A stretch of DNA of 64,000 nucleotides from Gammaproteobacteria bacterium UBA4421 (GTDB taxonomy: Bacteria; Pseudomonadota; Gammaproteobacteria; Pseudomonadales; Azotimanducaceae). The notes under the pieces were generated by a model, which saw only the letters and a program-made list of their open reading frames with translations, had not been told where the DNA came from and searched no databases. Every line of letters starts with the position of its first letter. Positions within the stretch are counted from its first letter, which is position 1. A program made the translations under genes and the position numbers. The stretch spans positions 1 to 64,000 of the forward strand of contig DGQF01000006.1 in assembly GCA_002389675.1 (NCBI GenBank). The letters run 5' to 3'. Of this stretch, positions 38,196 to 57,693 are shown one piece after another.

Positions 38196-38204
38196 ACCCT
38201 CAGT

Positions 38205-38915
38205 ATGAATGCACCGGGAGATATCCCCCTCCATATCGCCATTATAATGGATGGCAACCATCGTTGGGCTTCGGCGCGGAAAATGCCGGGTGCGGCTGGG
38301 CATCGTGCGGGGGCGCAGAGAGTGCGAGAGGTTGCAGAACATTGTGCGCAGGCGGGGGTCAAAAACCTTACTTTATTTGCGTTTAGCACCGAAAACTGGC
38401 GGCGTCCGCCACCTGAGGTGAGGCTTCTGATGGATCTCATGCGCCGTGTCATGGATCACGATATTGACGAACTGCATCGACGCGGCGTGCGGTTGCGTTT
38501 TATTGGTGAGCGAAGTCGGTTTCAAGCTGATATGCAAGAAAGAATGACGCACTGTGAAGTGTTGACTCAAAGCAATGATCGTTTGAATCTCACCGTAGCG
38601 GTTAATTTTGGTGGGCGTTGGGATATCGTTGAAGCCGCGCGGAGATTGGCGCACTTGGTCCAAGCAGAGGAGATCAAACCTCATGATATTGACGAGGAAA
38701 ACTTTGCGCGGGCAACGTCGCTGTCCTATCTACCCGACCCAGATTTACTGATTCGCACCGGTGGCGACCATCGAATCAGCAATTTTTTATTATGGAATCT
38801 CGCTTATACAGAACTGTATTTTACTGATCTGTTCTGGCCAGACTTTGATGAAGCTGCTGTTGATGCAGCGATGAAAGAATATGCGTCCAGAAAACGTCGA
38901 TTCGGTGGGCGTTGA
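38205..38915 (+). CDS. uppS: Isoprenyl transferase (undecaprenyl diphosphate synthase)
   Basis: 236-residue cis-prenyltransferase making the C55 lipid carrier for peptidoglycan and LPS. Catalytic Asp in IMDGN, FAFSTENW, the VNFGGRWDI block and IRTGGDHRISNFLLW are present. The normally conserved Gly of MDGNGRW is His here (residue 19). Length matches E. coli UppS (253) with a shorter C-terminus. The gene needs FPP/IPP, yet no MEP-pathway gene is found at the usual neighbouring sites. Confidence 0.96.
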   Translation: MNAPGDIPLHIAIIMDGNHRWASARKMPGAAGHRAGAQRVREVAEHCAQAGVKNLTLFAFSTENWRRPPPEVRLLMDLMRRVMDHDIDELHRRGVRLRFIGERSRFQADMQERMTHCEVLTQSNDRLNLTVAVNFGGRWDIVEAARRLAHLVQAEEIKPHDIDEENFARATSLSYLPDPDLLIRTGGDHRISNFLLWNLAYTELYFTDLFWPDFDEAAVDAAMKEYASRKRRFGGR

Positions 38916-38920
38916 GTCGA

Positions 38921-39709
38921 ATGTTACGTCTGCGCGTCATAACAGCGGTTGCTTTGGTGGGAATGGTACTTTTCTCAATTTTCGCTTTGTCCGCACCGGC
39001 ATTAGCCGTCGGCTTCTGGCTTTTGGCGGCAATTGGGGGTTATGAATGGGCGCATCTGGCTGGTCTGCGCTCCCGCTCCCAAAAGATGGCATTTGTCGCA
39101 CTGTTTGGACTGATTGCGTGGCTTTTTTATGGCAGGGTTGACGTCTACGAGGATATGCTGCGTTTGGGATGCGGTGTTTGGTTTTTTGCCGCCATCACGG
39201 TACTCATGGCACCTCGTGGTCAACGCGCGTTCACTTCCCGCGGCTTCATGATCCTTTTGGGTTTGTCTGTTTTGTTGCCTGCATGGGTCGCGTTGGTGGT
39301 GATTCGTGATCAACCGCAAGGGCAATTGTGGTTGCTGTGGTGCCTGTGTATTGCGGTAGCAGCGGACGTTGGGGCTTATTTTACGGGCCGCAGGTTCGGT
39401 CGACACAAACTGGCACCAGCTGTCAGTCCGGGCAAAACCTGGGAAGGTGCGGTGGGCGGTATGGCTGTGGCTATGCTGGTATGTGGTCTGGGCGCAGTTG
39501 CGCTGGGCGAACGGAGCCTAAGTTGGCTGCTTATTATTGCGGCTTTGGTGGTTGTTTCCATATTTGGGGATCTTTTCGAAAGCGTGATGAAGCGCGTGGC
39601 CGGTGTCAAAGACTCAGGAACGATTTTGCCTGGGCATGGCGGGGTACTAGATCGGATTGATTCACAACTGGCTATTTTACCGGTTTTTGCGTTGATCTTA
39701 GCGTCCTGA
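38921..39709 (+). CDS. cdsA: Phosphatidate cytidylyltransferase
   Basis: 262-residue polytopic inner-membrane enzyme making CDP-diacylglycerol. About eight hydrophobic spans and the C-terminal signature SVMKRVAGVKDSGTILPGHG with LDRIDS identify it. The N-terminus MLRLRVITAVAL from ATG 38921 matches E. coli CdsA, so this start is preferred over TTG 38912, which overlaps uppS. In Pseudomonas dxr follows cdsA; here 131 bp of regulatory-looking DNA leads directly to rseP. Confidence 0.95.
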   Translation: MLRLRVITAVALVGMVLFSIFALSAPALAVGFWLLAAIGGYEWAHLAGLRSRSQKMAFVALFGLIAWLFYGRVDVYEDMLRLGCGVWFFAAITVLMAPRGQRAFTSRGFMILLGLSVLLPAWVALVVIRDQPQGQLWLLWCLCIAVAADVGAYFTGRRFGRHKLAPAVSPGKTWEGAVGGMAVAMLVCGLGAVALGERSLSWLLIIAALVVVSIFGDLFESVMKRVAGVKDSGTILPGHGGVLDRIDSQLAILPVFALILAS

Positions 39710-39742
39710 TGTTGCCATATGTGGAAAGATAGCTCGTGTTGT

Positions 39743-39770
39743 GGAACTGACGATACACACTGTAATCCAA
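39743..39770 (+). promoter_or_regulatory. Candidate sigma-E promoter upstream of rseP-bamA
   Basis: GGAACTG (39743-39749), then exactly 16 nt, then TCCAA (39766-39770). The sigma-E consensus is GGAACTT-N16-TCnAA/TCTGA, so this matches six of seven and four of five bases with ideal spacing. RpoE control of rseP-bamA-skp would fit known biology. A TATAAT hexamer at 39789-39794 followed by GCTCCCC lies just downstream without a good -35, and could be a second, housekeeping start. Confidence 0.5.
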
Positions 39771-39840
39771 TTTACTTTCGGAACTCTATATAATGCTCCC
39801 CGCCCAGCTCATACAACGCAAAATGGTAGAAATTTAACTC

Positions 39841-55255: not shown

Positions 55256-56089
55256 ATGCAGCTATGCGGTTTTGAAATAGGCGGGAATCGTCCGCTATTT
55301 GTCATTGCGGGGCCCTGTGTCATTGAATCAGAACAGCTGGCTATGGAAACGGCTACCACGCTGAAAAATATGACTGATTTGCTTGGCATTTCTTTTATTT
55401 ACAAGAGCTCTTTTGACAAGGCCAACCGCAGCGCACTGGATAGTTATCGTGGTCCCGGTATTGAGCAGGGGCTGCGCATATTGGAAAAAGTGCGGCGCGA
55501 ACTCGAAGTGCCGGTGCTCACCGATGTGCACGAAGATACCCCTCTTGACGAGGTTGCTGATGTGGTCGACGTTTTACAGACGCCCGCGTTTTTGTGTCGT
55601 CAAACTAATTTTATCGTGAATGTCTGTAATCAAGGCAAACCTGTCAATATTAAAAAGGGGCAGTTCTTGGCGCCTCTGGATATGGTTCATGTCGCCGATA
55701 AAGCAAAATCTACGGGCAACGAAGCGGTTATGGTCTGTGAACGCGGGGCGAGTTTTGGCTATAACAACCTAGTCTCTGATATGCGCAGTCTGTCGTGGCT
55801 GCGCCAGACGGGGTGCCCGGTGGTTTATGACGCGACGCATTCTGTGCAGATGCCCGGCGGATTAGGGCAGGTTTCCGGCGGATACCGAGAGATGGTGCCA
55901 GTATTGGCGCGCGCCGCGGTTGCGGCGGGGGTCGCCGGCGTTTTTATGGAATCTCATCCGCGTCCCGATGAGGCACGTTCTGATGGTCCTAATGCATGGC
56001 CCATGGGTATGATGAATTCGTTATTAACACAACTTAAAGCCATTGATGGCTTGGTCAAACAACAACCTTGGTTGGAAGATCAGCTTTAG
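55256..56089 (+). CDS. kdsA: 3-deoxy-D-manno-octulosonate 8-phosphate synthase
   Basis: 277-residue TIM-barrel enzyme condensing PEP and arabinose 5-phosphate to KDO8P for the LPS inner core. GPCVIES near the N-terminus, [10 protein letters not shown], the LDMVHVADK region and the [13 protein letters not shown] and [16 protein letters not shown] segments are standard. Length is near E. coli KdsA (284). AAGGA lies 9 nt before the ATG. It sits between pyrG and eno, supplying the LPS pathway begun by the lpx genes upstream. Confidence 0.97.
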
Positions 56090-56103
56090 CACAAGGAGAA
56101 ATC

Positions 56104-57405
56104 TTGGACAGGTCAAACATTTCATCGATAGTGGCGCGAGAAATTCTGGACTCGCGTGGCAATCCGACCATTGAAGCGGAGGTGGTGACCGATAATGGCG
56201 CCATGGGTAGGGCCGCGGCACCCTCGGGCGCTTCTACCGGCACTCGCGAAGCGTTAGAGCTGCGCGACGGTGATCAGCAACGCTATCTGGGTAAAGGGGT
56301 CACTCAAGCGGTTGCGCACGTGCAAAATGAAATTGCAGCGGCGTTAGTGGGGCAAGATTGTGCAGACCAGCGCGCAATAGACGGTTTGATGCTGGCTTTA
56401 GATGGTACGGAAAACAAGTCGAAATTGGGCGCAAATGCAACGCTTGCGGTGTCCTTAGCGGCGGCCAAGGCGGCTGCCAAAGCACAGAACCTGCCGTTGT
56501 ATCAGCACATTAATGCGCTAGCTGGCGGCCCATCAATGTGTATGCCTGTGCCGATGATGAATATTCTTAACGGTGGCGAGCACGCCGACAATAACGTTGA
56601 TATCCAAGAGTTTATGGTGCAGCCGGTTGGCGCCCAAAGCTTTCGAGAGGCTCTGCGAATAGGTGCTGAAATTTTCCATGTTCTAAAAGCGGTGTTGCGC
56701 GAGATGGGATTGGCAACTGCTGTGGGTGATGAAGGGGGGTTCGCGCCGAATCTGACCTCTAACGCACAGGCGCTGGAAGTCATCGCTGAAGCGGTTAGCC
56801 GCGCGGGTTATCAATTAGGTACGGATGTTACTTTGGCGCTTGATTGTGCTGCTTCGGAATTTTACCGCGATGCGAGGTATCAACTCAGTGGCGATGGCAG
56901 TAGCTATGATGCCCCGGGCTTTGTCGACTATTTGGCCGCCTTGTGTGATCAACATCCAATTGTCTCAGTAGAAGATGGCATGGATGAGAGTGATTGGTCG
57001 GGCTGGAAATTGCTCACCGATCGATTAGGCCATCGGGTGCAGTTGGTGGGTGATGATTTGTTTGTTACCAACACAAAAATACTCTCGAGAGGGATCGAGC
57101 AGGGTGTTGGCAACTCTATTTTGATAAAATTTAATCAAATCGGCACGTTGAGTGAAACGTTAGACGCCATAGCAATGGCTTCCCGAGCAGGCTATACCAG
57201 TGTGATATCCCACCGTTCAGGTGAAACTGAAGATACAACCATTGCTGATTTGGCTGTGGGTACTGGGGCAGGCCAAATTAAAACCGGTTCGCTTTGCCGC
57301 AGTGATCGGGTGGCGAAGTACAATCAGCTCCTGCGGATTGAGGATCACCTGGGAGCAGCCGCGTTCTATCCCGGACGCTCAGCAGTTAAAACCTTGAGTA
57401 AATAA
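56104..57405 (+). CDS. eno: Enolase, TTG start
   Basis: 433-residue glycolytic enzyme converting 2-phosphoglycerate to [17 protein letters not shown] at the N-terminus, [24 protein letters not shown], catalytic Lys in [10 protein letters not shown] and the [15 protein letters not shown] loop are all present. The start is TTG at 56104 with a perfect AAGGAG 5 nt upstream; the open frame to 56068 lies inside kdsA. Length matches E. coli (432). kdsA ends 14 bp before. Confidence 0.97.
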
Positions 57406-57410
57406 TCGCC

Positions 57411-57689
57411 GTGAAAGTGCTGGTATTAATGGTGTCGCTGATCTTGGTCTACTTGCAATATACCCTTTGGTTCGGGCCTTCAGGGCATTTCGCACAAGAG
57501 CGCCTGCGCGCTCAGCTGGCCCAGTATGAAGCAAAAGTAGAGGTGCTGGAGCAAGGGAATCGGATGCTCACGGCTGAAGTTCGAGCGCTCAAACGAGGCA
57601 ATAGCGCTTTGGAAGCGCGCGCGCGTGAAGATTTAGGCTTAATTAAATCCGATGAAGTGTTTTATCTGACGCCAGAAGGGCAACGGTAA
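57411..57689 (+). CDS. ftsB: Cell division protein FtsB, GTG start
   Basis: 92-residue bitopic divisome protein linking FtsQ and FtsL. A short cytoplasmic start, one membrane span (about 3-19) with the YLQYTLWFG motif, and a periplasmic coiled coil (about 30-70) ending in AREDLGLIKSDEVFY match the family. GTG 57411 is 5 bp after eno. In relatives ispD and ispF come next; here truD follows after 4 bp. Confidence 0.94.
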   Translation: MKVLVLMVSLILVYLQYTLWFGPSGHFAQERLRAQLAQYEAKVEVLEQGNRMLTAEVRALKRGNSALEARAREDLGLIKSDEVFYLTPEGQR

Positions 57690-57693
57690 TCCG

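What the first reader, a model, noticed from the sequence alone, without database searches (positions are those of the whole stretch)
38196..57693. MEP isoprenoid genes dxr, ispD and ispF all missing from their conserved positions
In E. coli dxr lies between frr and uppS; in Pseudomonas between cdsA and rseP. Here frr-uppS are 9 bp apart and cdsA-rseP 131 bp apart with no gene. ispD and ispF normally lie between ftsB and truD; here these are 4 bp apart. Three genes of one pathway absent at separate sites suggests loss of the pathway and its replacement (mevalonate route, as in Legionella and Coxiella) or relocation as a set. uppS shows isoprenoids are still made. Caution: accA, surely needed, is also absent from its usual place.
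Basis: partly seen in the sequence, partly recalled or inferred. Interest (0 to 1): 0.72.

Follow-up and report, generated by a model that had tools for sequence, protein, structure and literature searches.

The report
Mevalonate swap, fused enzyme, DXS lost
This bacterium has lost the usual bacterial route to isoprenoid building blocks and carries the mevalonate route instead, with two of its steps fused into one protein, yet it keeps a vitamin B6 enzyme whose raw material the lost route used to supply.

Summary
On two other contigs lie MDD, a PMK-like kinase, HMGR fused to mevalonate kinase, type I IDI and HMG-CoA synthase. dxr, ispF and ispG are missing from 5 of 5 sampled genomes of the window's family, but present in 134, 134 and 135 of 145 genomes of the order. 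Replacement of MEP by mevalonate is a known kind of event. Two points are less ordinary. (1) HMGR and mevalonate kinase form one protein of about 750 aa, in one frame in 85 of 85 loci examined; my paper searches listed no description of it. (2) DXS is gone too, in 37 of 37 tested genomes on the window's side of the fusion tree, yet an intact PdxJ, which by established biochemistry uses DXS's product DXP, is present here and in one relative checked by contig. pdxJ has also left its E. coli place after recO, inside this window. A second family of the order that lacks dxr, ispF and ispG kept DXS (4 of 4). The source of DXP here is unknown.

The parts
37620..38195 (+). frr; followed after 9 bp by uppS, where E. 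coli has dxr
   Evidence: TIGR00496 228.6 bits, over cut-off; E. coli order
38205..38915 (+). uppS (polyprenyl diphosphate synthase): isoprenoids are still used
   Evidence: TIGR00055 271.6 bits, over cut-off
38912..39709 (+). cdsA
   Evidence: NF008635 171.6 bits, below its cut-off of 385, no rival name for the whole protein
39710..39840 (.). 131-bp gap cdsA-rseP: the place of dxr in this order, empty
   Evidence: dxr beside rseP in 30 of 30 dxr loci, cdsA on the other side in 29; no dxr remnant
39841..41172 (+). rseP
   Evidence: TIGR00054 318.8 bits, over cut-off
57411..57689 (+). ftsB
   Evidence: NF002058 83.3 bits, below its cut-off of 101
57690..57693 (.). 4-bp gap ftsB-truD: the place of ispD-ispF, empty
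   Evidence: ispF beside truD in 27 of 30 ispF loci of the order; E. coli order
57694..58662 (+). truD
   Evidence: NF002153 231.9 bits, below its cut-off of 413, only TruD models match
14593..15285 (+). recO; in E. coli followed by pdxJ-acpS, here by rlmD
   Evidence: TIGR00613 90.1 bits, over cut-off; E. coli order
15272..16612 (+). rlmD, overlapping recO by 14 bp: the E. coli place of pdxJ is empty
   Evidence: TIGR00479 239.8 bits, over cut-off

Best explanation
The lineage lost the MEP pathway and makes IPP and DMAPP by the mevalonate pathway. HMG-CoA synthase makes HMG-CoA; one fused protein reduces it to mevalonate with its class II HMGR half and phosphorylates the mevalonate with its mevalonate kinase half; a GHMP kinase, taken to be phosphomevalonate kinase, and diphosphomevalonate decarboxylase give IPP; type I IDI gives DMAPP; uppS and other prenyl synthases use them. 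The MEP genes left their operons without a detectable remnant, which closed the gaps seen in the window. DXS went too, so the DXP for the retained PdxJ must come from elsewhere. Shown: presence and absence of genes, domain make-up, conservation. Inferred: enzyme activities, any passing of mevalonate between the halves, order of events, the source of DXP.
For: MEP genes absent: dxr, ispG, ispH, ispF, dxs, ispD. Mevalonate genes present: HMGR, HMGS, and by NCBIfam over the cut-off HMGR TIGR00532, mevalonate kinase TIGR00549, MDD TIGR01240, IDI TIGR02150. The absence is a trait of the family: dxr, ispF and ispG missing in 5 of 5 f1 genomes, all 5 with the HMGR-kinase fusion. Gene order MDD-PMK-fusion kept in 69 of 84 distinct loci. 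The same genome searches find these genes in 134-135 of 145 genomes of the order, so they are sensitive.
Against: The PMK-like kinase is below the PMK cut-off (76.3 against 165.7 bits), and sequence and fold searches list mevalonate kinases among its best matches too. HMGS is over the Pfam but below the NCBIfam cut-offs. HMGR alone is no sign of the switch: 31 of the 40 HMGR-bearing genomes of the order also have ispG. ispE and thiolase were not searched. The genome is a 62-contig assembly, 98.3% complete. No activity is shown.
Confidence: 0.93

Rival explanations
1. The MEP genes are present but relocated as a set, or lie in assembly gaps; the mevalonate genes are an addition.
For: The assembly has 62 contigs and is 98.3% complete; 31 other genomes of the order have both HMGR and ispG.
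Against: Six MEP genes missing at once in the window's genome, and three of them missing in 5 of 5 genomes of the family.
Confidence: 0.02
2. The puzzle of PdxJ without DXS is only apparent: PdxJ is idle or a relic and B6 comes from PdxS/PdxT or from uptake.
For: pdxA, pdxS and pdxT were not searched; pdxJ has left its old place after recO.
Against: The pdxJ ORF is intact, over two curated cut-offs, and its relatives in the group are 64-74% identical over nearly the full length in the top of the list, which speaks for selection.
Confidence: 0.25
3. DXP is made by a known substitute: a very divergent DXS, the methylthioadenosine shunt, or phosphorylated deoxyxylulose taken up from outside.
For: The methylthioadenosine shunt is described as a route to DXP (PMC10663253, passages).
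Against: The DXS model finds only hits below its cut-off in this clade, such as transketolase. The shunt and kinases were not searched.
Confidence: 0.25

Closest known systems
Mevalonate-using bacteria without (complete) MEP: 541 of 4,400 species in PMC10663253 (passages seen)
   Same: Mevalonate enzymes present, MEP genes missing
   Different: Here six MEP genes including dxs are missing across a family, and HMGR is fused to mevalonate kinase
Wenzhouxiangella mevalonate pathway (PMC7691419, passages seen)
   Same: Wenzhouxiangella records carry the same HMGR-mevalonate kinase fusion, and 3 of 3 tested lack DXS
   Different: Other side of the fusion tree, different order by its record titles; the passages seen do not mention the fusion or DXS
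Class II ('degradative') HMGR of Pseudomonas mevalonii type, and stand-alone mevalonate kinase
   Same: HMGR half over the TIGR00532 cut-off; kinase half over the TIGR00549 cut-off
   Different: Both in one chain; the PDB relatives found are separate proteins
Candidate bacteria with MEP but no Dxs: 181 in PMC10663253 (passages seen)
   Same: DXS missing while an enzyme that uses DXP is kept
   Different: Here the rest of MEP is gone as well; the DXP user found is PdxJ

Membership tests
Mevalonate-only bacterium | dxr, dxs, ispD, ispF, ispG, ispH absent | tested here: met
Mevalonate-only bacterium | ispE absent | not tested
   No search spent on it
Mevalonate-only bacterium | HMGR, mevalonate kinase, MDD, IDI present | tested here: met
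   All over NCBIfam cut-offs
Mevalonate-only bacterium | HMG-CoA synthase present | tested here: met
   PF01154 and PF08540 over cut-off; below the NCBIfam cut-offs
Mevalonate-only bacterium | Phosphomevalonate kinase present | tested here: inconclusive
   GHMP kinase in the operon, below the PMK cut-off; best match 3k17 'Lin0012 protein', a PMK by my recollection, but mevalonate kinases rank close
Mevalonate-only bacterium | Acetoacetyl-CoA thiolase present | not tested
   No search spent on it
Mevalonate-only bacterium | IPP made from mevalonate in the cell | not testable with these tools
   Needs an experiment
DXP-dependent vitamin B6 pathway | PdxJ present | tested here: met
   TIGR00559 221.1 and NF003626 312.2 bits, over cut-offs
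DXP-dependent vitamin B6 pathway | DXS present as source of DXP | tested here: not met
DXP-dependent vitamin B6 pathway | PdxA present and PdxS/PdxT absent | not tested

The most novel reading that the evidence does not exclude
This family supplies DXP for vitamin B6 without DXS, by an enzyme not yet recognised as a natural DXP source (for example a side activity of transketolase or a pyruvate dehydrogenase), or its PdxJ takes another ketose phosphate. Loss of the MEP pathway would then have freed the DXP step to be replaced. Its HMGR-mevalonate kinase would in addition be a natural two-step enzyme.
Probability: 0.4. Interest if true: 0.75.

Novelty: new variant of a known kind. Interest (0 to 1): 0.52.

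Why it matters
It adds a family of uncultured Gammaproteobacteria to the bacteria without MEP; lacking DXR they should be indifferent to fosmidomycin, which targets Dxr (stated in PMC13001223). The HMGR-mevalonate kinase fusion is a candidate two-step catalyst for terpenoid engineering. PdxJ kept without DXS lets one look for natural DXS substitutes where DXP serves cofactors rather than isoprenoids; the second family of the order, which lacks dxr, ispF and ispG but kept DXS, is a natural control.

Tried and rejected
Relocation of dxr, ispD and ispF: rejected by genome searches. Apparent ispD and dxs hits: GlmU, a MurU-like protein and a transketolase; the dxs N-terminal model also rings in control genomes such as Lactococcus and Methanocaldococcus, so weak hits mean little. 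A dxr remnant in the window: none. HMGR as a marker of the switch: rejected, 31 of 40 HMGR genomes also have ispG. Other long HMGR frames of the order as the same fusion: rejected for the three looked at, which carry an APH/EcKL-type kinase. A PdxJ type that marks loss of DXS: weakened, because close relatives of the best PDB match 6w6a are named in Stenotrophomonas, Xanthomonas and Lysobacter, which I recall as DXS users (not tested). Structure model of the fusion from five rows: failed, pLDDT 47. In one search my label 'surE' stands for pcm.
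Full report
Observation. E. coli has dxr between frr and uppS and ispD-ispF between ftsB and truD. In the window's order, rseP lies next to dxr in 30 of 30 dxr loci (cdsA on the other side in 29), and truD next to ispF in 27 of 30 ispF loci (each set is the 30 best loci of searches that found the gene in 134 genomes). So the sites are really empty, and no dxr remnant is left.

Whole genome. The window is contig C45 of a 3.07-Mb, 62-contig genome, 98.34% complete. dxr: none. 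ispG: none. ispH: none. ispF: none. dxs: one hit of 23.9 bits, a transketolase beside metK that scores 908 bits with the transketolase model. ispD: two weak hits, GlmU and a MurU-like protein. ispE was not searched. Over 145 genomes of the order dxr is found in 134, ispF in 134 and ispG in 135. All three are missing from 5 of 5 genomes of the window's family (f1) and 4 of 4 of a second family (f38). The other misses are G114 and G119 for dxr and G052 and G119 for ispF, all 83% complete or less, and G007 for ispG.

Replacement. Contig C14 carries, on one strand, diphosphomevalonate decarboxylase (C14:129451-130410), a GHMP kinase (128528-129454) and a long ORF (126292-128604) in which a class II HMGR is fused to a mevalonate kinase. 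Contig C18 carries type I IDI and next to it HMG-CoA synthase. HMGR, mevalonate kinase, MDD and IDI exceed NCBIfam cut-offs; HMGS exceeds the Pfam but not the NCBIfam cut-offs. The GHMP kinase is below the PMK cut-off; a profile of 41 of its relatives and its predicted fold (pLDDT 95) match 3k17, 'Lin0012 protein', best (a Listeria PMK by my recollection), but mevalonate kinases follow closely and the known S. pneumoniae PMK ranks behind several of them, so the PMK role rests mainly on its place in the operon. HMGR alone says little: 40 of 145 genomes have one, and 31 of these also have ispG.

The fusion. All five f1 genomes have it, the other four being 59-68% identical to the window's. In these 80 plus the five f1 loci, HMGR and mevalonate kinase lie in one frame in 85 of 85 (L065 is the same record as L038). 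Motifs for the catalytic residues, recalled, were found in 84-85 of 85 for HMGR and 82 of 85 for the kinase. MDD-PMK-fusion stand in this order on one strand in 69 of 84 distinct loci, IDI follows the fusion in 39, and HMGS lies in the locus in 7. Titles include uncultured Pseudomonadales, HTCC2089, K189A, Wenzhouxiangella, Rhodanobacter, Dyella, Nevskia, Marinobacter gelidimuriae, KSB1 and Calditrichaeota. A tree of 84 fusions has two sides, 47 rows with all five f1 genomes and 37 rows with Lysobacterales and others (quick method, midpoint root, so it cannot tell who gave the operon to whom). That f1 is the HTCC2089/Azotimanducaceae group is my inference from neighbours in that tree and from source names. 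My paper searches on this (the last two read as listings of 25 of 70 and 12 of 19 papers) listed no such fusion; the review PMC13001223 (abstract, passages, sections 9 and 11) uses the word fusion once, for IspDF. This does not prove that it is undescribed.

DXS. 16 of 59 pass the cut-off: the MEP control G004, 4 of 4 f38, and 11 fusion bearers, all on the other side of the fusion tree. f1: 0 of 5. The f1 side of the tree: 0 of 37 tested, four of them titled as single chromosomes (L071, L074, L088, L101). The other side: 11 with and 5 without. The completeness of genomes reached through loci is not told, and one, L052 (2.0 Mb), had no hit at all. In f38 one DXS was read: a 596-aa ORF.

PdxJ. 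The window's genome nevertheless has an intact pdxJ (C38:70180-70950, 256 aa, over two curated cut-offs). G148, a relative without DXS, has one too: PdxJ P0166 and fusion P0030 are both listed with a longest contig of 658,920 bp from a 'Pseudomonadaceae bacterium', the length and title of L049's record. Two more contig lengths (4,636,606 and 5,470,758) occur in both lists, but DXS was not tested there. PdxJ was not searched in the other f1 genomes, and pdxA and pdxS in none. The place of pdxJ in E. coli, recO-pdxJ-acpS, is empty in the window: recO is overlapped by rlmD, after lepA-lepB-rnc-era. The copy on C38 is 38% identical to E. coli PdxJ, with N-K where E. coli has D11-H12. Its best PDB match is 6w6a (223 bits, against 118 for the E. 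coli enzyme), whose close relatives are named in Stenotrophomonas, Xanthomonas and Lysobacter. So both the fusion operon and PdxJ have relatives in Lysobacterales; whether they moved together is open.

Mechanism and what is known. Replacement of MEP by mevalonate is a known kind of event (PMC10663253, passages: 541 of 4,400 species; Wenzhouxiangella, PMC7691419, passages). Less ordinary here are the fusion and the loss of DXS with PdxJ kept. I think a side activity of a thiamine-diphosphate enzyme the likeliest single source of DXP; laboratory suppressors of DXS loss are mentioned in two papers seen in part, but nothing here tests it. Paper searches for PdxJ with mevalonate or with missing dxs listed nothing on this state (listings, and passages of PMC10663253).

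Noticed in passing
L039:5618-8044 (-), L040:1685-4660 (+), L041:6702-9500 (+): In three families of the order that keep MEP, an HMGR is fused at its C-terminus to an APH/EcKL-type kinase, not a GHMP kinase, and lies next to a PPDK_N/PEP-utiliser protein in all three: a second, unrelated HMGR-kinase fusion in a conserved cluster.
   Followed up: partly
L042-L045, L201 (family f38): A second family lacks dxr, ispF and ispG and has separate HMGS, kinase and MDD genes, but keeps DXS in 4 of 4 genomes.
   Followed up: partly
G007 (family f8): A 6.5-Mb genome given as 100% complete has dxr and ispF but no ispG and no HMGR match; its four sampled family mates have a lower-scoring ispG.
   Followed up: no
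window 51916-51946: accA is absent between dnaE and tilS, which overlap; E. coli has accA after dnaE. Not searched elsewhere.
   Followed up: no
window 58655-58662: truD is followed directly by pcm; the nucleotidase gene that lies between them in E. coli (surE/umpG) is not there.
   Followed up: no
L105, L111, L114: The fusion operon also appears in records titled Marinobacter gelidimuriae, KSB1 and Calditrichaeota, placed among Lysobacterales-like fusions: transfer or misassigned contigs.
   Followed up: no
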